Assembly (NCBI RefSeq): GCF_026967805.1 | Contig: NZ_JAPVBG010000001.1 | Location: 1,007,143 to 1,071,142, forward strand | DNA from: Blastococcus sp. VKM Ac-2987 | Lineage (GTDB): Bacteria > Actinomycetota > Actinomycetes > Mycobacteriales > Geodermatophilaceae | Reading direction: 5' to 3' | Length of the DNA: 64,000 bases | Shown: in pieces, positions 8,139 to 44,455 of the stretch | Layout of the letters: every line of letters begins with the position of its first letter | How positions within the stretch are numbered: the first letter of the stretch is position 1 | The notes under the pieces: model-generated | What the model was told of the DNA's origin: nothing | Database searches by the model: none | What the model saw: the letters and a program-made list of their open reading frames with translations, nothing else | Translations under genes and position numbers: made by a program

Positions 8139-8664
8139 CGGTCCCCGGCTCGACGTCCCCAGCGGCGGCGCGCGGCGGTTCGGCAGCTTCCTGCGGCTCA
8201 ACCCCGACGCGGTCGGGCAGTTCGCCGAGAGCATCGCGCGCTTCCTGGGCACCGGCCGGTTCCTGGCCGTGCAGACGATCCTCGTCGTCGTCTGGATCGC
8301 GCTCAACGTCTTCGCCGTGCGGCTGCGCTGGGACCCGTACCCCTTCATCCTGCTCAACCTGGCGTTCTCGACCCAGGCCGCCTACGCCGCCCCGCTGATC
8401 CTCCTGGCGCAGAACCGGCAGACCGACCGCGACCGGGTGCAGGCGGAGGAGGACCGTGCCCGGGCCGCGTCGACGCGCGCGGACACCGAGTACCTCGCCC
8501 GCGAGCTCGCCTCGGTGCGGGTGGCGGTCGGTGAGCTGGCCACCCGTGACTTCATCCGCAGCGAGCTGAACCGGCTGCTGCCCGAGGACACCGACGACGA
8601 CGGCGGCGGCGAGCGGAAGAAGAAGGGCAAGAAGCGCCGGGAGCAGGCCGACCCGGTCGCCTGA
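8131..8664 (+). CDS. DUF1003 membrane protein
   Basis: A 177-residue protein. It shows two membrane helices ('FLAVQTILVVVWIALNVFAV' and 'PFILLNLAFSTQAAYAAPLIL') with the DUF1003 feature 'WDPYPFILLNLAFS' and 'LAQNRQTDRDR' after the second helix. An alanine/arginine-rich coiled-coil segment (about 105-150) follows, then a Lys-rich tail. The family's function is unknown. GTG at 8131 lies inside the end of the MgtE_N/CBS gene (8-nt overlap), which argues for joint expression. I infer that the pair forms a magnesium-linked membrane complex; the sequence alone does not prove it. Confidence 0.85.
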   Translation: MADGPRLDVPSGGARRFGSFLRLNPDAVGQFAESIARFLGTGRFLAVQTILVVVWIALNVFAVRLRWDPYPFILLNLAFSTQAAYAAPLILLAQNRQTDRDRVQAEEDRARAASTRADTEYLARELASVRVAVGELATRDFIRSELNRLLPEDTDDDGGGERKKKGKKRREQADPVA

Positions 8665-8673
8665 CGCGGCGGG

Positions 8674-9342
8674 TCAGATGATCCCGGTGTCGTGGAGCAG
8701 GCGGTTCAGCAGCTCCTGCGCCAGCCAGGCCATGGGCAGCAGCAGCCCGAGCGCCCAGAGGCGGGTGCTCCGGTGCCGCGGCAGGACGAGCACGACGACG
8801 AGGGCGACGACGATCTCCACGGCCGCCTGGACCGGGTGCAGCACCACGTCGCTGCCCGTCCGCTCCAGCCAGACGCCCCGCAGGGCGCCGTTCGCCAGGG
8901 CGGTACCCGCCGCCAGGGCGAGCACGGCACCGGCCGCCGGACCAGGCCGCCGGGTGGCCCAGCACGTCCCCATGGCGAATACGGCCACGGCGGTGGCGGA
9001 CAGGGCCAGCCAGGCCAGGATCAGCTGCGGCTCGTAGCCGAACCCGAGCACGAACACCGCCCAGCCGTAGTACGCCGCGGTCATCGCGGCGAAGAAGGCC
9101 GCGGCGCGGAGGGCCGCCGCGCCGACCCCCGGCGCGAACCGGCTGATCAGCGCGACCACCAGCACCCAGGCCGCGGGATAGGTCCCCAGGTCGCCGGCCC
9201 ACTGCCAGCCCGACTCGTCCGCGGCCTTGGCCGCGACCCCGGCGAGGGCACCGAGCACGGCGAGACCGGCCGGCCGGCGCAGCCCACGCGAGCGGGATGC
9301 CGTCCGGGCGGGCGCCGGCTCCTGCTCGCGCACCTCGGTCAC
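8674..9342 (-). CDS. Hypothetical integral membrane protein
   Basis: A 222-residue protein with about six predicted membrane helices, for example 'GTYPAAWVLVVALISRFAPGV', 'FFAAMTAAYYGWAVFVLGF', 'ILAWLALSATAVAVFAMGTCW' and 'AAVEIVVALVVVLVLP'. I do not recognise the family. The N-terminus is short, charged and probably cytosolic. The gene converges on the DUF1003 gene with a 9-bp gap. It starts at GTG 9342, upstream of and on the same strand as nothing obvious; azlD ends 58 bp further upstream, so an azlC-azlD-membrane protein transcript is possible. Confidence 0.7.
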   Translation of the reverse strand: MTEVREQEPAPARTASRSRGLRRPAGLAVLGALAGVAAKAADESGWQWAGDLGTYPAAWVLVVALISRFAPGVGAAALRAAAFFAAMTAAYYGWAVFVLGFGYEPQLILAWLALSATAVAVFAMGTCWATRRPGPAAGAVLALAAGTALANGALRGVWLERTGSDVVLHPVQAAVEIVVALVVVLVLPRHRSTRLWALGLLLPMAWLAQELLNRLLHDTGII

Positions 9343-9400
9343 GCGGCGATCGTGGCCGACGGAGGGCCGATCCGGTGGTTCCGGCGCGCAGCGGTACCGG

Positions 9401-9712
9401 TCAGCCGGTGAGGACGTGCACGAGCGCCCCGGCCGCCCCGGCGAGGACCAGAACCAGGATGAACGGCGCCCGCATCGCCAGGGCCAGAGCTGCGACGGCG
9501 AGCCCGGCCAGCCGGCCGTCGACCACGACGTCGTCGCCGCTGGTCAGCCCCTGCACCACGACCAGCGCGGCGAGCAGCGCCGCCGGCACGAAGTCCACGA
9601 CCCGCGCCACCCACGGCTGCTCCACCCACGACGCGGGCACCGACAGCCCGGCGAGCTTGAGCAGGTAGCAGCCGACGGAGGCGACGAGCACCGCCGTCCA
9701 GGTGGCGCTCAC
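9401..9712 (-). CDS. azlD: AzlD-family branched-chain amino acid export subunit
   Basis: A 103-residue protein with four hydrophobic segments and the AzlD pattern 'SVGCYLLKLAGLSVP', 'VARVVDFVPAALLAALVVVQGL' and 'AGLAVAALALAMRAPFILVLVLAGAAGAL'. AzlD pairs with AzlC to export branched-chain amino acids or analogues. The GTG at 9712 overlaps the azlC stop (GTGA), consistent with coupled translation of the two subunits. Confidence 0.88.
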   Translation of the reverse strand: MSATWTAVLVASVGCYLLKLAGLSVPASWVEQPWVARVVDFVPAALLAALVVVQGLTSGDDVVVDGRLAGLAVAALALAMRAPFILVLVLAGAAGALVHVLTG

Positions 9713-10410
9713 GACGTCACCGCACGCCGCGGCCGGCCGGCCAGGGCGACCGCCACGACGGCGGCGACCACCTGCACCCCGGGCGGGACGAACGGGGTCA
9801 GCGCCAGGGCGACCACCGCGCCGCCGAGCGCCACCCGGCGCTGCACGGCGGGCTCGGGGAACCCGCGGCCCAGCCGCGGCCAGAGCAGGGCGAGGAACGC
9901 GGCCGGGACGACGGCGTCCAGCGCCGCCCGCGCGGTACCGCCCAGCGCGGCGGCGCCGAGCGCACCGACGACGGTCGTGGCGTTCCAGGTCAGGTACAGC
10001 GTCGCCCCGCCCACCCAGAACGCCAGCCCGGCGAGCGCCCGGTCGGGGGCCGCAAGCGACAGCGCCGTCGTCTCGTCGATGACCCAGTGCGCCGTCCCCG
10101 CGCGGCGCAGCGGACCACGCGGTCGCAGCAGCGGCACCAGCCGCACGCCGTAGACGGTGTTGCGGGTGCCCAGCAGCAGCGCGCTGCCGACGGCGGCCAG
10201 CGCGCTGCCACCGGCGCCGAGCACGCCGACGAGGGCGAACTGCGAGGCCCCGGTGAACATGACGGCCGACAGCACCAGCGCCTGCCAGACGTCCAGCCCC
10301 GCCGCGTCGGCGGCGGCACCGAACGCCACCCCGTACAGGCCGACGGCGAGGCCCAGGCCGACGGCGTCGCGCAGCGTGCGGGCGCGGGCGGGATCGGGCA
10401 CGTCCGCCAA
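9709..10410 (-). CDS. azlC: AzlC-family branched-chain amino acid export subunit
   Basis: A 233-residue membrane protein with the AzlC hallmarks 'GLYGVAFGAAADAAGLDVWQALVLS', 'FTGASQFALVGVL' and 'VIDETTALSLAAPD'. With AzlD it forms an exporter for branched-chain amino acids, often under Lrp control. I take TTG at 10410 as the start, because TACCCC lies 5 nt upstream (a leaderless arrangement); a GTG at 10401 is the alternative. No Lrp/AsnC gene is adjacent. Confidence 0.87.
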   Translation of the reverse strand: MADVPDPARARTLRDAVGLGLAVGLYGVAFGAAADAAGLDVWQALVLSAVMFTGASQFALVGVLGAGGSALAAVGSALLLGTRNTVYGVRLVPLLRPRGPLRRAGTAHWVIDETTALSLAAPDRALAGLAFWVGGATLYLTWNATTVVGALGAAALGGTARAALDAVVPAAFLALLWPRLGRGFPEPAVQRRVALGGAVVALALTPFVPPGVQVVAAVVAVALAGRPRRAVTS

Positions 10411-34161: not shown

Positions 34162-34839
34162 ATGCCTCCTGCAGCCACCGACTTCTACGCGGCAGCGCTG
34201 CAGTCCACGGGGACATCACGAGGTCCGGCGCCCGAACCCTGGTCGGTGCGCGACGCCGACGGCCGCACCTTCTCCCTCGCCGGCGCCCTCGACCGGTGGA
34301 CCGGCGACGCCGACGCCGTCGACCGGAACTTCCTCGCCCGTGCCCGCGGCACCGTCCTCGACGTCGGGTGCGGCCCGGGGCGGCTGGCCGCGGAGCTGGC
34401 CCGCCGCGGCGTGCACGCGCTGGGCCTCGACATCTCCCCCACGGCGCTGCGGCTGGCCCGCCGGTCGGGCGCCACGGTGATCCGGCGCTCGGTCTTCGAG
34501 CCGGTCGTCGCCGAGGGCCTGTGGGGCACCACGCTGCTGGCCGACGGCAACATCGGGATCGGCGGGGACCCGACGGCGCTGCTGCGGCGCTGCCGGGCAC
34601 TCGTCACCCCCGGCGGTCTGGTGCTCGTGGAGACCGAGCGCCCCGGCGTCGGGCAGCGCACCACCCGCCTGCGCCTCGAGCGGGCCGGCGAGGTGAGCTC
34701 GTGGTTCGACTGGGCGCACGTGGGCTGCGACGCGATCGAGGAGCTGGCGGCCGCCGCCGGGCTGCGCCTCACCGAGTCCTGGGCGGACGGCGGCCGCTGG
34801 TTCGCCGCCCTCCGGCGCACCCCGGCGCCCGTCGGCTGA
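34162..34839 (+). CDS. Class I SAM-dependent methyltransferase
   Basis: A 225-residue methyltransferase with 'GTVLDVGCGPGRLAAELARRGVHALGLDIS' (SAM loop and acidic ribose-binding residue), 'LLADGNIGIGGDP' and 'VTPGGLVLVETERPG'. The shape resembles methyltransferases that, as I recall, accompany GT2/DUF2064/molybdopterin oxidoreductase clusters in actinobacteria. Here that cluster begins 2.5 kb downstream, beyond pepA, DUF3117 and tagI. The start is ATG 34162. It is convergent with the pepA-like gene, 9 bp apart. The substrate is unknown. Confidence 0.82.
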   Translation: MPPAATDFYAAALQSTGTSRGPAPEPWSVRDADGRTFSLAGALDRWTGDADAVDRNFLARARGTVLDVGCGPGRLAAELARRGVHALGLDISPTALRLARRSGATVIRRSVFEPVVAEGLWGTTLLADGNIGIGGDPTALLRRCRALVTPGGLVLVETERPGVGQRTTRLRLERAGEVSSWFDWAHVGCDAIEELAAAAGLRLTESWADGGRWFAALRRTPAPVG

Positions 34840-34848
34840 CGGGCCCGA

Positions 34849-36441
34849 TCAACCGGCGCCGGTGACGGGCGCGCCGGCCTCCAGCCAGTGCAGCAGCGTG
34901 CGGGTGCCGAACCCGGTGCCGCCCCGCGCCAGCTCCCCGTCGTCGGACGCGGCACGCGCGGGGCCGGCGATGTCGAGGTGGGCCCACGGCAGGTCCCCGG
35001 CGAACGGCCGCAGGAAGAGCGCGGCCATGGTCCCGCCCGGACCGCTCGGCGCATCGGTCGCGTCGGCCACGGCGCTGTCGAGCAGTGCGCCGTACTCCCC
35101 GTCCAGCGGCATCCGCCAGGCCGGCTCACCGGCCTGCGCCCCCGCCGCGCCGAGGGCGGCCGCCAGCCCGTCGGTGGTGGTGTACAGCGCCGCGGTGCGG
35201 GCACCGAGCGCCACCTTCGCCGCCGCGGTCAGCGGCGCGACGTCGACCAGCGCGGTGGCCCCGAGGTGCAGCCGGGCGTGGGCCAGCGCGTCGGCGAGCA
35301 CCAGGCGACCGTCGGCCGCGGTGGTGCGCACCTCGGTCGAGCGCCCGTCCACGTGCCGCACCACGTCCGACGGGCGATAGGACGAGCCCGACACCGCGTT
35401 CTCCGACACCGGCACGACGGCGGTCACGGCGACCGGCAGCTCCAGCCGCGCGGCGGCGTCCACGGCGGCGAGGACGGCAGCGCCGCCGGCCATGTCGGTC
35501 TTTGTGTGCCGCACGGCGGCCGAGCGCGTGATCGACAGGCCCCCGGTGTCGAAGGTGGTGCCCGGGCCGACGAGCACGGGGTGCCCCGGCCCTGCCTCCG
35601 GGTGCCGGTAGGCCGCGACGACGACGGCCGGGGGGTGGGCCGAGCCGCCGCCGACGGCGAGGACGCCGCCGAACCCGCCGGCCGCCAGCTCGCGCGGTCC
35701 CAGCACGTCGACCGTGACGTGCGGCAGCCCGGCGAGCCGGTCGACGGCCTGCGCGGCCAGCCACGCGGGGGTCTTGGTGCTGGGCGGGGTGTTGACCAGG
35801 TCGCGGGCCCAGCCGACGGCGCCGGCGGCCACCTGCCCGGCGCGCACGGCGGCACCGGCCGCGTCGGCGTCGGCGAGGACGACGGCGACGGTGCACAGCC
35901 GGGGCGGGTGCGGTCGCGACGAGTCCCGGAACCGGTAGCCGGCGAGCAGGGCCCCCTCCACGGCGACCCGGACCTCCGCCGCTCCCGCGGGGGCGGCGGC
36001 ACCGTCCAGGGGCAGCACCAGCCGGCGGGCGCCGTGCCGCGCCAGCGTCTGCCCCCGGCGGACGGCGGTGGCCGCGTAGCGGCGCACCTCGGGGAGCGTC
36101 CCGTCGCCGATGCCGACGGCGACCACGCTGCGGGGCCGGCGCCCCGCGATCGGCACGTTCGTGACGGCGCGCGGCCGGCCGGTGTTCCCCGTGTCGGCCA
36201 GCGCACCGGCCAGCAGCCCGGGGTCGACCACGGGCGAGGCGGCGGCGGTGAGCCACGGCGGCAGGACGGCGCCCGTGGCGACCGGCACCGCCAGCACGTC
36301 GTCGGCCCCGAGCTCCGGGACGGCGGCCAGCACCTCGAGCCGCGGGAACGGCGCGGCCCCGGTCGCCGGCGGTGTGCCGACGGCCGGGGCCGCGTCGTCC
36401 TGCGCGGGGCTGCCCGGGGGCAGGCTCGCAGGTGGTCTCAG
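34849..36441 (-). CDS. Leucyl aminopeptidase-family (M17) protein with altered metal site
   Basis: A 530-residue protein if it begins at CTG 36441, which overlaps the DUF3117 stop as CTGA. GTG 36333 would give 494 residues but cut off the first strand ('FPRLEVLAAVPEL'). M17 blocks are 'ARDLVNTPPSTKTPAWLAAQA', 'VLVGPGTTFDTGGLSI', 'HTKTDMAGGAAV' and 'STEVRTTAADGRLVLADAL'. In active enzymes these read VGKG...FDSGG and NTDAEGRL. Here the metal-ligand Lys is Pro, the Asp is Ala and the Glu is Asp, so peptidase activity is doubtful or metal use differs. The catalytic-region Lys ('TKTDM') and Arg remain. Confidence 0.8.
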   Translation of the reverse strand: MRPPASLPPGSPAQDDAAPAVGTPPATGAAPFPRLEVLAAVPELGADDVLAVPVATGAVLPPWLTAAASPVVDPGLLAGALADTGNTGRPRAVTNVPIAGRRPRSVVAVGIGDGTLPEVRRYAATAVRRGQTLARHGARRLVLPLDGAAAPAGAAEVRVAVEGALLAGYRFRDSSRPHPPRLCTVAVVLADADAAGAAVRAGQVAAGAVGWARDLVNTPPSTKTPAWLAAQAVDRLAGLPHVTVDVLGPRELAAGGFGGVLAVGGGSAHPPAVVVAAYRHPEAGPGHPVLVGPGTTFDTGGLSITRSAAVRHTKTDMAGGAAVLAAVDAAARLELPVAVTAVVPVSENAVSGSSYRPSDVVRHVDGRSTEVRTTAADGRLVLADALAHARLHLGATALVDVAPLTAAAKVALGARTAALYTTTDGLAAALGAAGAQAGEPAWRMPLDGEYGALLDSAVADATDAPSGPGGTMAALFLRPFAGDLPWAHLDIAGPARAASDDGELARGGTGFGTRTLLHWLEAGAPVTGAG

Positions 36442-37337: not shown

Positions 37338-38402
37338 GTGCGCGTCCTCGTCACCGGCGGTGCCGGCTTCATCGGTTCGGCCGTCGTCTCCGCCCTGCGC
37401 GACGCGGGTTCCGAGGTGCGGGTGCTCGACGCCCTGCTGCCGGCCGTCCACCCCGACTACCCCGACGGCCCACCGCTGCCGGCGGGCGCGGAGCTGCAGG
37501 TCGGCGACGTGCGCGACGCGGCCGCGGTGGACCGCGCGCTCGACGGCGTGGACGCGGTGTGCCACCAGGCCGCGATGGTCGGCCTGGGCGTCGACGTGCA
37601 GGACATGCCCCTGTACGCGGGCATCAACGACCTCGGCACGGCCGTGCTGCTGGCCGCCATGGCGCGCGCCGGGATCGGCCGGCTGGTCCTGGCCAGCTCC
37701 ATGGTCGTGTACGGGGAGGGCCGCTACTCCTGCGCCGAGCACGGTCCGGTGCCGGCGGCGCCCCGGCGGCGCGCCGACCTCGACGCCGGCCGGTTCGAGC
37801 CGCCGTGCCCCCGCTGCGACCGGCAGCTGGGCTGGGACCTGGTCACCGAGGACGACGTGCCGGACCCGCGCAACACCTACGCCGCCACCAAGCTCGCCCA
37901 GGAGCACCTCTCGGCCGCGTGGGCCGGCGCGACCGGCGGGAGCGTCGTCGCCCTCCGGTACCACAACGTGTACGGCCCCCGGATGCCGCGGGACACCCCC
38001 TACGCCGGTGTCGCGTCGATCTTCCGCAGCGCCCTGGAGTCCGGCCGCGCCCCCGCCGTCTTCGAGGACGGCGGCCAGCAGCGCGACTTCGTGCACGTCT
38101 CGGACGTGGCGGCGGCCAACCTCCGCGCGCTCGAGCACCCGCCCGCCGGGTCCTCGCTGCGCGCCTACAACGTGGCGTCGGGCCGGCCGCACTCGGTGGG
38201 CGACATGGCCCGGGCCCTGGCCGAGGCCATGGGCGGCCCGGAACCCGCCGTGACCGGCGAGTACCGGCTCGGGGACGTGCGGCACGTGGTGGCCAGCCCG
38301 GCCCGGGCGGAGGCCGAGCTGGGGTTCCGCGCCGAGGTCGACTTCGGCGACGGCATGCGCGAGTTCGCCACCGCCCCGCTGCGCCCGGCGCCGCGGGGCT
38401 GA
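37338..38402 (+). CDS. NAD-dependent epimerase/dehydratase (extended SDR) with Cys-rich insert
   Basis: A 354-residue extended SDR. It has the GxxGxxG NAD motif ('VTGGAGFIGS'), the Tyr181-x3-Lys185 pair ('YAATK') and a C-terminal sugar-nucleotide region ('QQRDFVHVSDVAAANLRAL'). An insert of about 40 residues before the catalytic Tyr carries Cys132, His135, Cys157 and Cys160 ('CAEHG', 'CPRC'), which could bind zinc. It likely modifies a UDP- or dTDP-sugar. It opens a cluster with glycosyltransferases, so a role in making a sugar donor is plausible. The start is GTG 37338. Confidence 0.88.
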   Translation: MRVLVTGGAGFIGSAVVSALRDAGSEVRVLDALLPAVHPDYPDGPPLPAGAELQVGDVRDAAAVDRALDGVDAVCHQAAMVGLGVDVQDMPLYAGINDLGTAVLLAAMARAGIGRLVLASSMVVYGEGRYSCAEHGPVPAAPRRRADLDAGRFEPPCPRCDRQLGWDLVTEDDVPDPRNTYAATKLAQEHLSAAWAGATGGSVVALRYHNVYGPRMPRDTPYAGVASIFRSALESGRAPAVFEDGGQQRDFVHVSDVAAANLRALEHPPAGSSLRAYNVASGRPHSVGDMARALAEAMGGPEPAVTGEYRLGDVRHVVASPARAEAELGFRAEVDFGDGMREFATAPLRPAPRG

Positions 38403-38412
38403 TCCGGGCGGG

Positions 38413-39780
38413 TCACCACTCGGTGCGGACCAGCACCTCCACGGCGAGCGCGGTGACCGCCGACAGCCCCAGCCAGAGCCGCGGTCGGCCGGCCGGCAGG
38501 AAGGCGGCCGCCGCGGGCAGCCAGACGGTGAACGGGAGCCAGATCCGCTCGGTCTCCCCGCGGACCAGGCCGGTCAGGTCGCTGACCAGCAGCCCGGCCA
38601 GCACGGCACCCAGGAGCAGGGCCAGCCGGGTGCGGCGCAGGCAGGCCAGCCCGGCCACCGCCGCGGGGCCGGCCGCGATCGCCGCCGCCGCCAGGTTGGC
38701 CACCAGGAAGAAGGCCAGCGGCCGGTCCGCGTACGACGGCCCCGAGCGCACCCGCTCGGCGGTCAGCGAGAGCCCCTCGAACCAGTCGTAGCCCCCGACG
38801 GCGAACAGCGCGAACACCACGAGCACGCCGGCGGCCGCGACCGCCAGCACGCGGACCACCCCCGCCCAGCCGAGCCGGTCGCGGTGCACCAGCACGACGG
38901 CGAGCGCCAGCAGCCCCAGCGACGCCAGCCCGAAGGACAGGTGCAGCGCCAGCCCGAGCAGCAGCCCCCCGGCGATGGCGGAGCCGGCGGCGCCCCGGCC
39001 CGGCGCCCGCGCGGCGGCGATGGCCAGCAGGGCGACGCCCCAGGCCATCACCCCGGCGAACAGCGCGTCGGCGCTCGTCGCCACCCAGAGCGCCGTCGGC
39101 GCCAGCACCAGGAAGGGCGCCACCGTGCGGGCGGTGCCCTCCGCCGCCACCGCCCGCACGGTTCCCAGCACCGCGGGCACCGCCAGCGCGCCGGCTCCGA
39201 TGCACATCGCCGCCGCCCATCCCAGGGCACCGAGGCCGGCCCGGTCCAGGAGGACGAAGGCGAGCAGCGCCCCCGGCGGGTGCCCCGACACGTGCGTCGT
39301 CCACGGGTCGGCGGAGTCGGCGAGGACGGAGTCGTTGAAGGTGCGCAGCAGCTCGCCGATGCCGCCCACCCGGCCGACGTCGTAGGGGTACTCGTACCGG
39401 CTGCCCAGCGGCTCGGCCAGCCGCCCCCACCCGCTCGCCAGGGCGAGGGCGACCGCCCAGCCGGCCGTCGCCGCGGCCGAGCCGGCCAGCAGCACCGGCC
39501 ACCGGGCCCGGCGGGCGGCGGCCGGCCCCCACAGCACGAGCGCGAGCCCGACCGCGACGGGCAGGAGCACCCGCGGGGAGAGCTGCGGGTCCCACGCACC
39601 GCGCAGCACCAGACCACCGATCAGGTGCAGGTCCACGCCATCGCGGGTCAGCCGCCAGCCGGCCAGCGCCGTGCCCGCGACGAGCAGGACGGCGGCGAGC
39701 AACCCGGCGCCGGGGCGCCACCAGCGGACGCCCGCGACCCGAGCCGCCGTGCGCGGTTCCTCCGTGGTCGCCCCGGTCAC
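38413..39780 (-). CDS. Multi-spanning GT-C-like membrane protein
   Basis: A 455-residue protein with about eleven or twelve predicted helices and few soluble segments. An early extracytoplasmic loop ('LHLIGGLVLRGAWDPQLSP') and a middle loop ('PYDVGRVGGIGELLRTFNDSVL', 'THVSGHPPGALLAFVLLDRAGLG') resemble GT-C polyprenyl-linked glycosyltransferases such as GT39/GT87 types, though no definitive catalytic motif is seen. It sits between the SDR and GT2 genes but on the opposite strand, with a TAGGGT 7 nt before its GTG. I infer a glycan assembly role from context. Confidence 0.7.
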   Translation of the reverse strand: MTGATTEEPRTAARVAGVRWWRPGAGLLAAVLLVAGTALAGWRLTRDGVDLHLIGGLVLRGAWDPQLSPRVLLPVAVGLALVLWGPAAARRARWPVLLAGSAAATAGWAVALALASGWGRLAEPLGSRYEYPYDVGRVGGIGELLRTFNDSVLADSADPWTTHVSGHPPGALLAFVLLDRAGLGALGWAAAMCIGAGALAVPAVLGTVRAVAAEGTARTVAPFLVLAPTALWVATSADALFAGVMAWGVALLAIAAARAPGRGAAGSAIAGGLLLGLALHLSFGLASLGLLALAVVLVHRDRLGWAGVVRVLAVAAAGVLVVFALFAVGGYDWFEGLSLTAERVRSGPSYADRPLAFFLVANLAAAAIAAGPAAVAGLACLRRTRLALLLGAVLAGLLVSDLTGLVRGETERIWLPFTVWLPAAAAFLPAGRPRLWLGLSAVTALAVEVLVRTEW

Positions 39781-39868
39781 CAGCCGGACCCTAGGACCCC
39801 GGCCGGACGGGGCCGGCGGAGGGTGCCGTCGGCGGGCGCGACCGGCGCGTTCGTGGTTGTGTCCTGGC

Positions 39869-40522
39869 GTGCCCGACGTCGTGCTGCCCTGCCTCGACGA
39901 GGCCGGCGCGCTCCCCTGGGTGCTCGGCCGGCTGCCCGCCGGCTACCGCGCGATCGTCGCCGACAACGGCTCGACCGACGGCTCGCCGGAGATCGCGGCC
40001 GCGCACGGGGCGACGGTGGTGCACGCGCCGCAGCGGGGTTTCGGCGCTGCCGCGCACGCGGGGCTGGAGGCGGCCACCGCCGACGTCGTCTGCTTCTGCG
40101 ACGCGGACGGGTCGATGGACCCCGCCGACCTGCCGCTGGTCGCCGATCCGGTGCTCGCCGGCAGCGCCGACCTCGTGCTCGGCCGCCGCCGGCCGACCCG
40201 GCGGAGCGCCTGGCCGCTGCACGCGCGGGTGGCCAACGTGGCGCTGGGCGTCATGCTGCGCCGCCGCACCGGCCTGGCGCTGCACGACCTGGGCCCCATG
40301 CGCGCCGCCCGGCGCACCCCCCTGCTCGGGCTCGGGCTCACCGACCGCCGCTTCGGCTACCCGCTGGAGATGGTCACCCGCGCTGCCGACGAGGGCTGGC
40401 GGGTGCGCGAGGTCGACGTGCCCTACGCGCCGCGCGCCGAGGGCACCCGCTCGAAGGTCACCGGCACCGTGCTGGGCACGGTGCGCACCATCCGGGACAT
40501 GCGGCAGGTGCTCTCGTCGTGA
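39869..40522 (+). CDS. GT2-family glycosyltransferase
   Basis: A 217-residue GT-A enzyme with 'DVVLPCLDEAGALPWVLGRLPAGYRAIVADNGSTDGS' and the DxD-like 'FCDADGSMDPADL', as in dolichol-phosphate-type GT2 enzymes that act on polyprenyl phosphate or lipid acceptors. There are no membrane helices. The last 10 residues precede a GTGA overlap with the DUF2064 gene, so the two are translated together. The start is GTG 39869; upstream open frame has no homology. Confidence 0.88.
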   Translation: MPDVVLPCLDEAGALPWVLGRLPAGYRAIVADNGSTDGSPEIAAAHGATVVHAPQRGFGAAAHAGLEAATADVVCFCDADGSMDPADLPLVADPVLAGSADLVLGRRRPTRRSAWPLHARVANVALGVMLRRRTGLALHDLGPMRAARRTPLLGLGLTDRRFGYPLEMVTRAADEGWRVREVDVPYAPRAEGTRSKVTGTVLGTVRTIRDMRQVLSS

Positions 40523-41190
40523 CCGGCAGCCAGCTGCTCGTCATCACCAAGGCGCCCGTGCCCGGACGCAGCAAGACCCGGCTCAGCCCGCCCTGCACCC
40601 CGGAGCAGGCGGCGGCCATCGCCGGGGCGGCGGTCGCCGACACGCTCGACGCGGTCCGCGCGGCCCCGGTGGCCCGCCGGGTGGTGGCCCTCGACGGGGA
40701 CGCGGGCGCGCTCAACCTGACCGGCTGCGTCGTCGTGCCGCAGGCCGAGGGCGACCTGGGCGTGCGGCTGGCGGCGGCCTTCGCCGACGCCATGGCCGGC
40801 CCCGGCGGAGCGCTGCCCACCCTGCTCATCGGGATGGACACCCCCCAGGTGACCGGGGACCTGCTCGCCGGCTGCCTCGACCGGCTGGTGGCGGCCGGCC
40901 CCGGTTCGGCCGTGCTCGGCGGCGCCCCCGACGGCGGCTGGTGGGCGCTGGGCCTGCACGCGCCGGAGCCCGCGCAGGTGCTCAGCGGCGTGCCCATGTC
41001 CCGGGAGGACACCGCCGTCCGCACGCGGGCGGCGCTGGAGGGCGCCGGCCTCACCGTGCTCGACCTGCCGGTGCTCACCGACATCGACCACTTCCCCGAC
41101 GCCGTCGCGGTCGCCGCGCTGTGCGACCCCGGCACCCGGACCCACCGGGTGGTGACCGGGCTGCGCGAGGCCCTCGGGACGGCGTCGTGA
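40519..41190 (+). CDS. DUF2064 / TIGR04282-type glycosyltransferase-like protein
   Basis: A 223-residue GT-A-fold protein. It has 'LLVITKAPVPGRSKTRLSPPCTPEQAAAIAGAAVADTL', 'LLIGMDTPQVTGDLL' and 'LGGAPDGGWWALGL', the hallmarks of DUF2064. Related proteins were noted next to proposed arsenosugar genes, and others resemble nucleotidyl- or guanylyltransferases; the reaction is not established. It overlaps the GT2 gene upstream (GTGA) and the molybdopterin oxidoreductase gene downstream (GTGA), so all three are coupled. Confidence 0.85.
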   Translation: MTGSQLLVITKAPVPGRSKTRLSPPCTPEQAAAIAGAAVADTLDAVRAAPVARRVVALDGDAGALNLTGCVVVPQAEGDLGVRLAAAFADAMAGPGGALPTLLIGMDTPQVTGDLLAGCLDRLVAAGPGSAVLGGAPDGGWWALGLHAPEPAQVLSGVPMSREDTAVRTRAALEGAGLTVLDLPVLTDIDHFPDAVAVAALCDPGTRTHRVVTGLREALGTAS

Positions 41191-42425
41191 CCGGCCGGCT
41201 GGACCGGCTGCTGGGGGCCCGCATCCCGGACCCGCCCGAGGGCCTGCGCCGCGGCCCCTTCCGCGCCGGCGCCTTCCCCAGCCCGCTGCACTCCGAGCGC
41301 CGCTCGGCGCGGGTGGGGGTGTGGCTGGGCCTGGCCTTCCTGGTGTGCTTCCTGACCGGGCTGGTCAGCGACCTCATCCAGTCGGGGCCGGAGTGGTTCT
41401 ACTGGCCGTCGTCCCCGGTCTGGCTCTACGGCCTGACGCAAGGCCTGCACGTGGCCACCGGGCTGGCGGCGATCCCGCTGCTGCTGGTGAAGCTCTGGAC
41501 GGTCTACCCGCTGCTCTTCGAGTGGCCGCCGGCCGGGTCGCTCGCCCGGCTGGTGAGCCGGCTGTCGATCCTGCTGCTGGTCGGCACGGCGGCCATGCAG
41601 CTGGTCACCGGGCTGATCAACATCGCGCAGTGGTACCCGTTCGGCTTCTTCTTCCCGGTCGCGCACTACTGGACCGGCTGGATCGCCATCGGCGCCGTCG
41701 CGGTGCACGTCGGGGCGAAGGCCCCGGAGATCCGGCGCGGCCTGGCCCGTCGCGGGTCACCCGGGGCCACGGCCGGGCTGGCACCGGAGCAGGCCGCGGA
41801 GCTGGCGGCCGCGGACGCCGCCGAGGAGGAGGGCGCGATCGGCCGCCGCGCGTTCGTCCTCGCCGCCGGGCTGGGCGTCGGCGCGGTGACCGTCACCACC
41901 CTGGGGCAGTCGGTCTCCGCGCTGGCCCCGGTGTCCCTGCTCGCGCCCCGGCTGCCCACGGTCGGGCCGCAGGGCCTGCCGGTCAACCAGACGGCCGCCG
42001 CCGCCCGGGTGCGGGAGACCGCCACCGATCCCGGGTACCGGCTGGTCGTCGACGGCCCCCGCCGGCTGGAGCTCTCCCTGGCCGACCTGGCGCGGCGGCC
42101 GCAGCACACCGAGACCCTGCCGATCACCTGCGTGGAGGGCTGGAGCGCCTCCGGCCGGTGGACCGGCGTCCGCCTCGCCGACCTGCTCGAGGAGGCCGGC
42201 CTCCCCCGCGGCACCGAGGTGGTCGTCGAGTCGCTGCAGACCGGCGGGCTGTACCGCACCAGCGTGGTGGCCCCGCCGCACGCCGCCGATCCGCGCACGC
42301 TGCTGGCCCTGCAGCTCCGCGGCGAGCCGCTGGCCCTCGACCACGGCTACCCGGTGCGGCTGATCGCCCCGAACCGGCCGGGTGCCATGCAGACGAAGTG
42401 GCTGACCCTGGTGCGGCCGGCATGA
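41187..42425 (+). CDS. Membrane molybdopterin oxidoreductase (b561-like region fused to sulfite-oxidase domain)
   Basis: A 412-residue fusion. Residues about 42-180 have four membrane helices with His88, His160 and His174 that may bind heme, as in cytochrome b561-like proteins. A second segment with a Tat-like 'GRRAFVLAAGLGVGAV' (about 219-235) leads into a sulfite-oxidase-type Mo-cofactor domain from about 265. There 'ITCVEGWSASGRWTGVRLADLL' provides the Mo-ligand Cys315. It probably oxidises or reduces a substrate outside the membrane and passes electrons to heme or quinone. It is translationally coupled to DUF2064 upstream and a small membrane protein downstream. The substrate is unknown. 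Confidence 0.85.
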   Translation: MTGRLDRLLGARIPDPPEGLRRGPFRAGAFPSPLHSERRSARVGVWLGLAFLVCFLTGLVSDLIQSGPEWFYWPSSPVWLYGLTQGLHVATGLAAIPLLLVKLWTVYPLLFEWPPAGSLARLVSRLSILLLVGTAAMQLVTGLINIAQWYPFGFFFPVAHYWTGWIAIGAVAVHVGAKAPEIRRGLARRGSPGATAGLAPEQAAELAAADAAEEEGAIGRRAFVLAAGLGVGAVTVTTLGQSVSALAPVSLLAPRLPTVGPQGLPVNQTAAAARVRETATDPGYRLVVDGPRRLELSLADLARRPQHTETLPITCVEGWSASGRWTGVRLADLLEEAGLPRGTEVVVESLQTGGLYRTSVVAPPHAADPRTLLALQLRGEPLALDHGYPVRLIAPNRPGAMQTKWLTLVRPA

Positions 42426-42931
42426 GCACCGGCATCTCGCGGGACGACCGCGCGGCCCGCCGGGTCGGCCGGGGGGATGCCTACGCCTCCGATCCCGCCC
42501 GCCCGCTGGCCTCGGCCGCCCGGCCCTGGTGGCGGTGGCTGTTCCTGGTCCCGGGCCTGGCCGCCGTCGGCTGGGGGGTCGTCGGGCTGCTCGGCGCGAG
42601 CGACCGGGTGCCGCTGTCGGGGTGGGCGCCGTGGTTCCTCGGCAGCGCGCTGCTGCACGACGTCGTCATCGCCCCGCTGGTCCTCCTCGGCGGCGCCGTG
42701 CTGACCCGCCTGCTGCCGCGGCCGGCCCGGGCGCCGATCGCGGTCGGGCTGGTGGTGAGCGGGATGCTGACCCTGGTGGCCCTGCCCTTCGTGCTCGACC
42801 CGGGGAACGTGCCGGAGCCGGGGTTCCTGCCGCAGGCCTACGCCCGGAACCTGCTGCTGCTCGTCGCCGGCGTCCTCGCCGCCTCCACGGTCTGGGCCGT
42901 CGTGCGGACGCGCCGGGCACCCCGCGGCTGA
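42422..42931 (+). CDS. Hypothetical four-helix membrane protein
   Basis: A 169-residue protein with a charged N-terminal 35 residues and four predicted helices ('WLFLVPGLAAVGWGVVGLLG', 'WFLGSALLHDVVIAPLVLLGGAVL', 'PIAVGLVVSGMLTLVALPFVL', 'LLLLVAGVLAASTVWAV'). I do not recognise a family. The ATG overlaps the stop of the molybdopterin oxidoreductase (ATGA), so it is likely a partner of that enzyme, perhaps an assembly or electron-transfer subunit; that is inference. Confidence 0.75.
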   Translation: MSTGISRDDRAARRVGRGDAYASDPARPLASAARPWWRWLFLVPGLAAVGWGVVGLLGASDRVPLSGWAPWFLGSALLHDVVIAPLVLLGGAVLTRLLPRPARAPIAVGLVVSGMLTLVALPFVLDPGNVPEPGFLPQAYARNLLLLVAGVLAASTVWAVVRTRRAPRG

Positions 42932-42952
42932 CCGGGGCGCTACCGTCCGCCG

Positions 42953-44455
42953 GTGGCCGTCCGCACCGCTCCCCACGCGCCCACCCCCGAGCGGCCGGCG
43001 CTGCACCGGGGGCCGCTGCTCGCCCTCGCCGCGGGCGTGGCCGCGCTGCTGCTGGCCCTGGCCGGGCGCTACGGCTACCACCGCGACGAGCTCTACTTCC
43101 TCCGCGCCGGCCGCGAAGCCGCCCTCGGCTACGTCGACCAGCCGCCGTTCACCCCGCTGCTGGCCGCCGCGCTGGACGCCCTCGCCCCGGGCTCCCTGAC
43201 CGTGCTGCGGCTGCCGTCGGCGCTGGCGGCCGGAGCGGTGGTCGTGCTCACCGGCCTGATCGCGCGCGAGTTCGGCGGCGGCCGGGGTGCGCAGCTGTTC
43301 GCGGCCGCCTGCACGGCGGTCTCGTCGATCCTGCTGGCCGTCGGCCACCTGCTCTCCACGACGACGTTCGACCTGCTGTTCTGGGCGCTGCTGTCGTGGC
43401 TGCTCGTGCGGGCGCTGCGCGACGGCGGCGCTAGCTGGCTGGTTCCCGGCCTGGTCGCCGGGCTGGCGCTGCAGAACAAGGTGCAGCCGGCGTTCCTGCT
43501 GGCGGCCGTGGTGCTCGGCCTGGTGCTGGTCGGCCCCCGGTCGGTGTTCCGCTCGCCGTGGCCGTGGGCCGGCGGCGCGGTCGCGCTGGCGGTCTGGGCG
43601 CCCAACCTGGTCTGGCAGGCCGCGCACGGCTGGCCGCAGCTGGCGCTGGCCGAGGCGATCGCCGCGGGCGGCTCGGGCACGAGCGAGCCCTGGTACCTCT
43701 TCCTGCCCTTCCAGCTCGTGCTGGTCAGCCCGGTGCTCTTCCCGGTCTGGATGGCCGGGTGGTGGCGGCTGCTGCGCGATCCCGCGCTGGCGACGTGGCG
43801 CTGCTTCGCCGTCGCCTACGCCGTCCTGGCCGTGCTGTTCCTCGTCACCGGCGGCAAGCCGTACTACCTGGCCGGTCTGTACCCGCTGCTGCTGGCGGCC
43901 GGTGCCGACCCGGCGCTGGCCTGGGCCCGCCGGGGCGGCGCCCGGGCCCGGCGCACCCTCGTCCCGGCGCTGGCCCTGAGCCTGGCCGCCGGCGCCGTCC
44001 TCATGCTGCCGGTGCTGCCGGCCCGCTGGCTGCCGGCCACGCCCGTGCCGGCGGTCAACTACGACGCCGGGGAGACCGTGGGCTGGCCGCGGTTCGCCGC
44101 CGCCGTGGAGCGGGCACGGGCCGGGCTGCCCGCCGGGGCGGAGGTCGTCGTCCTCACCGGGAACTACGGGCAGGCCGGCGCCGTCGACCGGTTCGCCCCC
44201 GCCCTGGGCCCGGCCTACAGCGGGCACAACTCGTACTGGACCTGGGGTCCGCCACCCGAGGGCGCCGGCGCCGCCGTGGTGGTCGGCCTGGCACCGCAGG
44301 ACCTGGCCCGCTGGTTCGGCGACGTCCGGCCGGCCGGCCGCATCGACAACGGGGTGGGGCTGGACAACGACGAGCAGGGCCGCACGGTCTGGCTGGCCAC
44401 CGACCGGCGGCTGCCGTGGTCGGAGATCTGGCCGCAGCTGCGCCGGCTGGGCTGA
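42953..44455 (+). CDS. GT39-family (PMT_2) membrane glycosyltransferase
   Basis: A 500-residue polytopic enzyme. It opens with 'RYGYHRDELYFLRAGREAALGYVDQPPFTPLLAA', the first extracytoplasmic loop of PMT_2/ArnT-like proteins with its acidic catalytic region. The series of helices that follows includes 'QNKVQPAFLLAAVVLGLVLV'. A soluble C-terminal domain occupies about the last 130 residues. Such enzymes move a sugar from a polyprenyl phosphate to an acceptor outside the cell. GTG 42953 has TACCGT 6 nt upstream, so it may have its own leaderless transcript although it follows the cluster by 21 bp. Its stop abuts the stop of the convergent EamA gene with no gap. Confidence 0.87.
   Translation: MAVRTAPHAPTPERPALHRGPLLALAAGVAALLLALAGRYGYHRDELYFLRAGREAALGYVDQPPFTPLLAAALDALAPGSLTVLRLPSALAAGAVVVLTGLIAREFGGGRGAQLFAAACTAVSSILLAVGHLLSTTTFDLLFWALLSWLLVRALRDGGASWLVPGLVAGLALQNKVQPAFLLAAVVLGLVLVGPRSVFRSPWPWAGGAVALAVWAPNLVWQAAHGWPQLALAEAIAAGGSGTSEPWYLFLPFQLVLVSPVLFPVWMAGWWRLLRDPALATWRCFAVAYAVLAVLFLVTGGKPYYLAGLYPLLLAAGADPALAWARRGGARARRTLVPALALSLAAGAVLMLPVLPARWLPATPVPAVNYDAGETVGWPRFAAAVERARAGLPAGAEVVVLTGNYGQAGAVDRFAPALGPAYSGHNSYWTWGPPPEGAGAAVVVGLAPQDLARWFGDVRPAGRIDNGVGLDNDEQGRTVWLATDRRLPWSEIWPQLRRLG

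What the first reader, a model, noticed from the sequence alone, without database searches (positions are those of the whole stretch)
37338..44455. Candidate undescribed glycan/redox system: SDR, GT-C, GT2, DUF2064, Mo-oxidoreductase, membrane protein, GT39
GT2, DUF2064, a b561-sulfite-oxidase fusion and a four-helix protein are chained by GTGA, GTGA and ATGA overlaps, which ties a molybdenum redox enzyme to glycosyltransfer. Flanking SDR, GT-C and GT39 genes and a nearby methyltransferase (34162) suggest a complete pathway for a modified cell-surface glycan or glycolipid. I know no characterised pathway with this set.
Basis: partly seen in the sequence, partly recalled or inferred. Interest (0 to 1): 0.7.

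Follow-up and report, generated by a model that had tools for sequence, protein, structure and literature searches.

The report
Methylthio-sugar pathway with molybdenum enzyme
This gene cluster looks like a relative of the pathway that caps a tuberculosis-bacterium surface sugar with an unusual sulfur-containing pentose, here joined to a molybdenum enzyme that may switch that sulfur between its reduced and oxidised forms.

Summary
The genes are present as described and form a real module. Across 296 Actinomycetes genomes the b561-Mo fusion occurs in 115; 113 of these also carry DUF2064 (131 genomes have it), and the two lie within 10 kb in 100 genomes of 18 families. In 30 relatives the fusion, GT2, DUF2064 and the 34162 methyltransferase occur in the same 18 genomes.

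The core is recognisable. In four mycobacterial genomes the homologous SDR, GT2, DUF2064 and GT-C follow the order MTAP-SDR-...-GT2-DUF2064-GT-C-MenE, that of the M. tuberculosis locus with MtxS (Rv0539) and MtxT (Rv0541c), which make the 5-methylthio-xylose (MTX) cap of lipoarabinomannan. MTAP lies within 12 kb of DUF2064 in 53 of 104 genomes with both.

Proposal: the module makes a polyprenyl-linked methylthio-pentofuranose and transfers it outside the membrane; the fusion, with a Cys motif like E. coli MsrP/YedY, interconverts its methylthio and methylsulfoxide forms, probably as a reductase. Against it: the window's genome shows no MTAP. It shows no Emb arabinosyltransferase either, so the acceptor is unlikely to be LAM. 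GT39 is not core. All chemistry is inferred.

The parts
34162..34839 (+). class I SAM-dependent methyltransferase, recurrent member of the module; here separated from the rest by an M17 aminopeptidase gene
   Evidence: Homologs at 100 bits or more in 53 of 60 unnamed loci; hit in 63 of 80 named fusion loci; same 18 of 30 relatives as GT2, DUF2064 and the fusion
37338..38402 (+). SDR of the NDP-sugar epimerase type (TGGAGFIG, YAATK, and an inserted CPRC), homolog of the SDR next to MTAP in mycobacteria
   Evidence: PF01370 162 bits; 62% identical (best tblastn segment) in L201, L202, L203, L205; hit in 64 of 80 named loci
38413..39780 (-). GT-C-like polytopic protein, homolog of the protein at the MtxT position
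   Evidence: 45-47% identical to the mycobacterial protein between DUF2064 and MenE in L201, L202, L203, L205; hit in 42 of 80 named loci; no Pfam match
39869..40522 (+). GT2, polyprenyl-phosphate sugar synthase type, homolog of the protein at the MtxS position
   Evidence: PF00535 71 bits; best NCBIfam similarities AglJ, dolichyl-phosphate hexose transferase and PpgS, all below cut-off; 53-55% identical to GT2 of L201, L202, L203, L205; one match per carrier genome at 1e-25 in 30 relatives
40519..41190 (+). DUF2064, CofC-like nucleotidyltransferase family; proposed to activate the pentose-1-phosphate
   Evidence: PF09837 86 bits; TIGR04282 116 bits (cut-off 134) and F420 CofC 29 bits (cut-off 105); PDB 3cgx E 1.2e-6
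41187..42425 (+). fusion: N-terminal b-type cytochrome-like helices, twin-Arg motif, then a molybdopterin domain that should lie outside the membrane
41295..41717 (+). four-helix b-type cytochrome-like part with invariant His88, His160, His174
   Evidence: Alignment A1 of 21 sequences; model helices 37-66, 79-110, 119-146, 156-177
41844..41849 (+). invariant twin arginine R220 R221 before a fifth helix: puts the Mo domain outside the membrane (inference)
   Evidence: helix 220-239 in the model
42033..42407 (+). Oxidored_molyb domain (PF00174); predicted Mo-binding Cys315 at 42129-42131 in the motif CVEGWS
   Evidence: motif aligned with E. coli YedY CVEAWS for a relative, L018
42422..42931 (+). 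small four-helix membrane protein with an invariant His-Asp; translationally coupled partner of the fusion
   Evidence: ATGA overlap; alignment A2 of 10 sequences, invariant R38, G45, W71, H79, D80, P85, Y140; 50 of 80 named loci by the window query
42953..44455 (+). GT39/PMT_2-like gene; not core to the module
   Evidence: PF13231 81 bits; found in 1 of 80 named loci

Best explanation
This is a methylthio-pentofuranose (MTX-type) glycosylation module with a dedicated molybdenum redox enzyme. Proposed steps: (1) a pentose-1-phosphate, 5-methylthioribose-1-phosphate where MTAP is present, is activated by DUF2064 acting as a nucleotidyltransferase; (2) the SDR epimerises it (ribo to xylo type); (3) GT2 moves it to polyprenyl phosphate; (4) it is flipped, and the GT-C (or GT87 in other genomes) transfers it to a surface glycan; (5) the SAM methyltransferase modifies the sugar or carrier, step unknown; (6) outside the membrane the b561-Mo fusion, with its four-helix partner, takes electrons from the quinol pool and reduces the methylsulfoxide back to methylthio, so that the surface sulfur can be oxidised by reactive oxygen or chlorine species and regenerated. 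Shown here: homology, synteny, co-occurrence and the active-site motif. Inferred: every chemical step, the sugar's identity in this genome, and the direction of the redox step.
For: Mycobacterial loci L201, L202, L203 and L205 carry MTAP+, SDR+, GT2+, DUF2064+, GT-C-, MenE- homologs with 62% (SDR), 53-55% (GT2), 42-49% (DUF2064) and 45-47% (GT-C) identity to the window's proteins in the best segment. PMC8780516 names Rv0539 MtxS and Rv0541c MtxT (figure legend); Rv0535 is MTAP (reference title). MTAP is within 12 kb of DUF2064 in 53 of 104 genomes with both, from 9 families. Two annotated plasmids, of Arthrobacter sp. U41 and Kitasatospora NBC_00039, carry MTAP within the cassette. 113 of 115 fusion genomes have DUF2064; four genes have identical presence in 30 relatives. 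The fusion shares the CVExWS motif with E. coli YedY, shows only PF00174 and ends with it, and has invariant His and RR. The sulfoxide MSX of the MTX sugar is seen in M. tuberculosis LAM (PMC8531672, passages). [quoted passage not shown] MsrP is a sulfite-oxidase-family MetO reductase (PMC7402097, passages).
Confidence: 0.5

Rival explanations
1. Same MTX-type pathway, but the Mo enzyme runs the other way: it oxidises the methylthio group to the sulfoxide and passes electrons into the respiratory chain, making MSX as the finished sugar.
For: The Mo domain is of the sulfite oxidase/dehydrogenase fold, whose solved members mostly oxidise sulfur; MSX ions are abundant among M. tuberculosis LAM termini (PMC8531672, passages).
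Against: The Cys motif and the missing dimerisation domain are those of the reductase YedY/MsrP. A b-type membrane partner fits delivery of electrons from quinol (recalled from MsrPQ, not tested). Non-enzymatic oxidation can also make MSX.
Confidence: 0.2
2. The module adds a polyprenyl-linked pentofuranose, but in this lineage it is not methylthio-xylose (for example a 5-deoxy- or an O- or S-methylated pentose made with the SAM methyltransferase), and the Mo enzyme acts on that different group.
For: No MTAP in the window's genome nor in 27 of 131 DUF2064 genomes; the methyltransferase is a steady partner (63 of 80 named loci).
Against: Homology of four proteins to the MTX locus and MTAP linkage in 9 families; a sulfur-active Mo fold suits a sulfur sugar.
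Confidence: 0.2
3. The fusion is a general extracytoplasmic methionine-sulfoxide reductase (an MsrPQ equivalent) whose position next to sugar genes reflects shared regulation rather than a shared substrate.
For: YedY-like motif; a response regulator hit in 45 and a kinase hit in 42 of 80 named loci (upper bounds, because any similar two-component pair would score); in some mycobacteria the fusion lies away from the sugar genes.
Against: The fusion almost never occurs without DUF2064 (2 of 115 genomes, one of them 72% complete), which a general repair enzyme would not show.
Confidence: 0.1

Closest known systems
M. tuberculosis methylthio-xylose (MTX) capping of lipoarabinomannan: MTAP Rv0535, MtxS Rv0539, MtxT Rv0541c (Angala 2017; paper not held, known here through passages of PMC8780516, PMC11127046 and PMC10503756)
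   Same: Homologous SDR, GT2, DUF2064 and GT-C in a matching gene order in four mycobacterial genomes; MTAP linkage in 53 of 104 genomes
   Different: Window genome shows no MTAP and no Emb arabinosyltransferase match; the module adds a methyltransferase, a b561-Mo fusion and a four-helix protein
E. coli MsrP/MsrQ (YedY/YedZ), periplasmic Mo-dependent methionine sulfoxide reductase
   Same: Sulfite-oxidase fold without dimerisation domain, CVExWS Cys motif; Mo domain outside with a membrane b-type part (inference)
   Different: Fused in one chain, far below the NCBIfam MsrP cut-off, and bound by co-occurrence to glycosylation genes
M. tuberculosis Rv0218, transmembrane protein with C-terminal molybdopterin domain (PMC5800017, passages)
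   Same: Same described architecture. The unlinked mycobacterial fusion in L101 has acyl-CoA dehydrogenase and MaoC-like genes on one side and a short ORF, an alpha/beta hydrolase and WS/DGAT on the other, which fits in part the order recalled for Rv0215c-Rv0221
   Different: L101 also has an amidohydrolase, a CoA-transferase and a methyltransferase that I do not recall there; its fusion is of a subfamily about 40% identical to the window's and unlinked to the sugar genes; identity with Rv0218 was not tested by sequence
Arsenosugar biosynthesis proteins TIGR04282/TIGR04283/ArsS
   Same: DUF2064 and GT2 are distant relatives, and one annotation of a homolog uses the TIGR04282 name
   Different: All below curated cut-offs; no match over the ArsS cut-off in the genome
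Three-component pentofuranose addition systems (Kelly 2024, PMC11127046, passages)
   Same: Polyprenyl-phosphate pentofuranose, flipping, GT-C transfer outside the membrane
   Different: Those start from PRPP with a UbiA-type enzyme part; that paper says it is unclear whether MTX addition exists outside lipoarabinomannan assembly

Membership tests
MTX (methylthio-xylose) pathway | GT2 homologous to the MtxS-position protein | tested here: met
   53-55% to the GT2 of L201, L202, L203, L205 between the SDR and DUF2064/GT-C/MenE; no M. tuberculosis sequence compared directly
MTX (methylthio-xylose) pathway | GT-C homologous to the MtxT-position protein | tested here: met
   45-47% in L201, L202, L203, L205
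MTX (methylthio-xylose) pathway | MTAP to supply 5-methylthioribose-1-phosphate | tested here: not met
   No match at 1e-20 in the window genome; its sole PNP_UDP_1 match passes a purine-nucleoside phosphorylase cut-off and not the MTAP ones. MTAP is present in 104 of 131 DUF2064 genomes
MTX (methylthio-xylose) pathway | acceptor is mannose-capped lipoarabinomannan | tested here: not met
   Indirect: no PF04602 (Emb) match in the window genome; 5 of 18 carriers and 3 of 12 non-carriers have one
MTX (methylthio-xylose) pathway | methylthio-xylose present in the cell envelope | not testable with these tools
   Needs NMR or MS
MsrP (YedY) Mo-dependent methionine sulfoxide reductase | sulfite-oxidase-type Mo domain without dimerisation domain | tested here: met
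MsrP (YedY) Mo-dependent methionine sulfoxide reductase | Cys motif C-V-E-x-W | tested here: met
   CVEGW invariant in 21 of 21 aligned sequences; aligned with YedY CVEAWS for L018
MsrP (YedY) Mo-dependent methionine sulfoxide reductase | NCBIfam NF003767 curated cut-off | tested here: not met
   28.7 bits against 207
MsrP (YedY) Mo-dependent methionine sulfoxide reductase | reduces methionine sulfoxide | not testable with these tools
   Needs enzymology
sulfite oxidase/dehydrogenase (SoxC, SorA, SorT) | NCBIfam cut-offs | tested here: not met
   49.8 of 420, 33.9 of 600, 19.3 of 570 bits
arsenosugar biosynthesis | TIGR04282, TIGR04283 and ArsS cut-offs | tested here: not met
   116 of 134 and 37.8 of 182 bits; ArsS model TIGR04167 63.5 of 300 bits in the whole genome

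The most novel reading that the evidence does not exclude
Actinomycetes far outside the mycobacteria coat their surface with a sulfur-containing pentose that works as a rechargeable antioxidant: oxidants turn its methylthio group into a sulfoxide, and a dedicated quinol-linked molybdenum enzyme fused to a b-type cytochrome reduces it back. It would be the first molybdenum enzyme dedicated to a surface glycan that I know of, and Rv0218 of M. tuberculosis would be the matching enzyme for its MTX/MSX caps.
Probability: 0.35. Interest if true: 0.88.

Novelty: new variant of a known kind. Interest (0 to 1): 0.74.

Why it matters
MTX is described as a hallmark of M. tuberculosis lipoarabinomannan (PMC8531672), and a 2024 paper states that it is unclear whether the modification exists outside lipoarabinomannan assembly (PMC11127046). 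The data here place DUF2064-fusion loci with homologs of that pathway in 18 Actinomycetes families, on chromosomes and plasmids, including the window's genome, which shows no Emb arabinosyltransferase. They also attach to the pathway a molybdenum enzyme family whose substrate I know of no test for, and suggest one, which makes both questions testable in harmless soil bacteria. If true, it also bears on how specific MTX-directed diagnostics are.

Tried and rejected

Limits of the counts: the fusion cut-off of 118 bits was chosen after seeing the list (the next independent genome scored 68); split hits on one contig were entered once. The families were first counted on a hand-made list and were recounted from the coordinates with the same result. 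In one search the place listing held 144 of 146 MTAP genomes; the other two have no DUF2064. P-values ignore relatedness. In one search (hits of 38 bits or more within 10 kb) kinase and regulator counts are upper bounds, and loci cut by contig ends were kept in n. The 60 unnamed loci are my pick from the hit lists, not all hits; the 20 DUF2064 loci are likewise a pick. The 80 named loci are the best 80 of more than 570. The NCBIfam table for the SDR showed 25 of 31 matches.
Full report
What is there. Family searches give an NDP-sugar epimerase-type SDR, a GT2, DUF2064, a molybdopterin oxidoreductase domain and a PMT_2 protein; the GT-C and the four-helix protein have no Pfam match. None of the NCBIfam matches shown for the seven is over its cut-off. 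The window lies in a genome of 4.6 Mb in 12 contigs; the best named loci are Blastococcus and Modestobacter, so I take it to be of the Geodermatophilaceae (inference).

Is it a module? I searched the fusion in 296 genomes of the class and DUF2064 in the same 296. The fusion, taken at 118 bits or more, is in 115 genomes and DUF2064 in 131; 113 have both, 2 have only the fusion (one genome is 72% complete; in the other the hit is on a 6-kb contig), 18 have only DUF2064 and 163 neither (Fisher odds ratio about 512, not corrected for relatedness). Of 134 DUF2064 places, 101 lie within 10 kb of a fusion, in 100 genomes of 18 families. Of 67 close fusions (290 bits or more) 62 have DUF2064 within 10 kb, and of 56 more distant ones 40 do; of the 21 others, 2 are in genomes without DUF2064, 5 are on the same contig but further away and 14 on another contig. 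In 30 relatives, fusion (over 200 bits), methyltransferase, GT2 and DUF2064 occur in the same 18 genomes and are missing from the same 12; within the genus, 9 of 18 have all four and 9 have none. In one carrier (G005) the fusion at this cluster is one of the distant subfamily (45% identical), which suggests that the two subfamilies do the same job.

What else belongs. Of the 80 named fusion loci, 70 have a GT2 hit, 68 DUF2064, 64 the SDR, 63 the methyltransferase, 45 a response regulator, 42 a histidine kinase, 42 the GT-C, 22 GT87, 21 MTAP, 3 EamA and 1 GT39. Family searches on representatives identify the methyltransferase, regulator, kinase, phosphorylase and GT87; the phosphorylase used as query passes the NCBIfam S-methyl-5'-thioadenosine phosphorylase (MTAP) cut-off. 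The window methyltransferase at 34162-34839 is homologous to the one that in many loci lies between DUF2064 and the fusion, with 100 bits or more in 53 of the 60 unnamed loci.

Link to a known pathway. A figure legend in PMC8780516 names Rv0539 MtxS, which forms MTX-P-C50, and Rv0541c MtxT, which transfers methylthio-D-xylose to the mannose caps of lipoarabinomannan. PMC11127046 says that the starting donor is 5'-methylthioadenosine and that it is unclear whether the reaction exists outside lipoarabinomannan assembly. Rv0535 is MTAP (reference title). I took four mycobacterial genomes in which DUF2064 is not beside the fusion. Their loci (L201, L202, L203, L205) read MTAP+, SDR+, a gap of a few kb, GT2+, DUF2064+, GT-C-, MenE-. 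The window's SDR, GT2, DUF2064 and GT-C match these at 62%, 53-55%, 42-49% and 45-47% identity in the best segment. MTAP, sought in the same 296 genomes, is in 104 of the 131 DUF2064 genomes and within 12 kb of DUF2064 in 53 of those 104, from 9 families; chance at 24 kb in 5 Mb would give about one half of a genome. On plasmids the cassette is compact: Arthrobacter sp. U41 carries fusion, small hypothetical protein, SDR, MTAP, GT87, methyltransferase, DUF2064 and GT2 with an IS3 transposase beside it; Kitasatospora NBC_00039 has the fusion, DUF2064, methyltransferase, SDR, a two-component pair and MTAP (no GT2 is annotated there, and that gene table is incomplete); a Mycobacteroides abscessus plasmid has the two-component pair, GT2, DUF2064, methyltransferase, fusion and small hypothetical protein.

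What does not fit. The window's genome shows no MTAP, and its single PNP_UDP_1 match is an ordinary purine-nucleoside phosphorylase. So the sugar here is either made by another route or is a different pentose. The window's genome shows no Emb arabinosyltransferase, and Emb is present in 5 of 18 carriers and 3 of 12 non-carriers among relatives, so the acceptor here is unlikely to be lipoarabinomannan. The step of the methyltransferase is unknown. DUF2064 occurs without the fusion in 18 of 131 genomes, in 8 of these with MTAP within 12 kb, so the fusion looks like an optional but dependent addition to the sugar pathway. The two-component system is not in the window's cluster.

Judgement. It is not without relatives: it is a variant of the MTX pathway. 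The new parts are its spread far beyond mycobacteria and lipoarabinomannan, and its tie to a molybdenum enzyme whose chemistry would suit the sugar's sulfur.

Noticed in passing
L072 (G005), fusion at about 8567-9964: In one congener the fusion in the cluster is of the distant subfamily (45% identical to the window's), while SDR, GT2 and methyltransferase are 87-93% identical.
   Followed up: partly
L231, Arthrobacter sp. U41 plasmid 152677-160058; L230; L232: Compact copies of the module lie on plasmids, the Arthrobacter one on a plasmid typed as conjugative, beside an IS3 transposase, so the module can probably move.
   Followed up: partly
L232, 6026-7283: A Kitasatospora plasmid has a cytochrome b/b6-domain gene and a molybdopterin oxidoreductase as two separate overlapping genes near the fused one.
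   Followed up: no
G028:C53:80332-81599: A second DUF2064 protein lies directly beside a PNP_UDP_1 phosphorylase, on a contig other than that of the fusion.
   Followed up: no
window 37338-38402: The SDR carries an inserted Cys-Pro-Arg-Cys stretch before the YAATK motif, which may bind a metal.
   Followed up: no
window 34849-36333: An M17 leucine aminopeptidase gene separates the methyltransferase from the rest in the window; no M17 hit was found in the matching locus of a close relative, L061.
   Followed up: no
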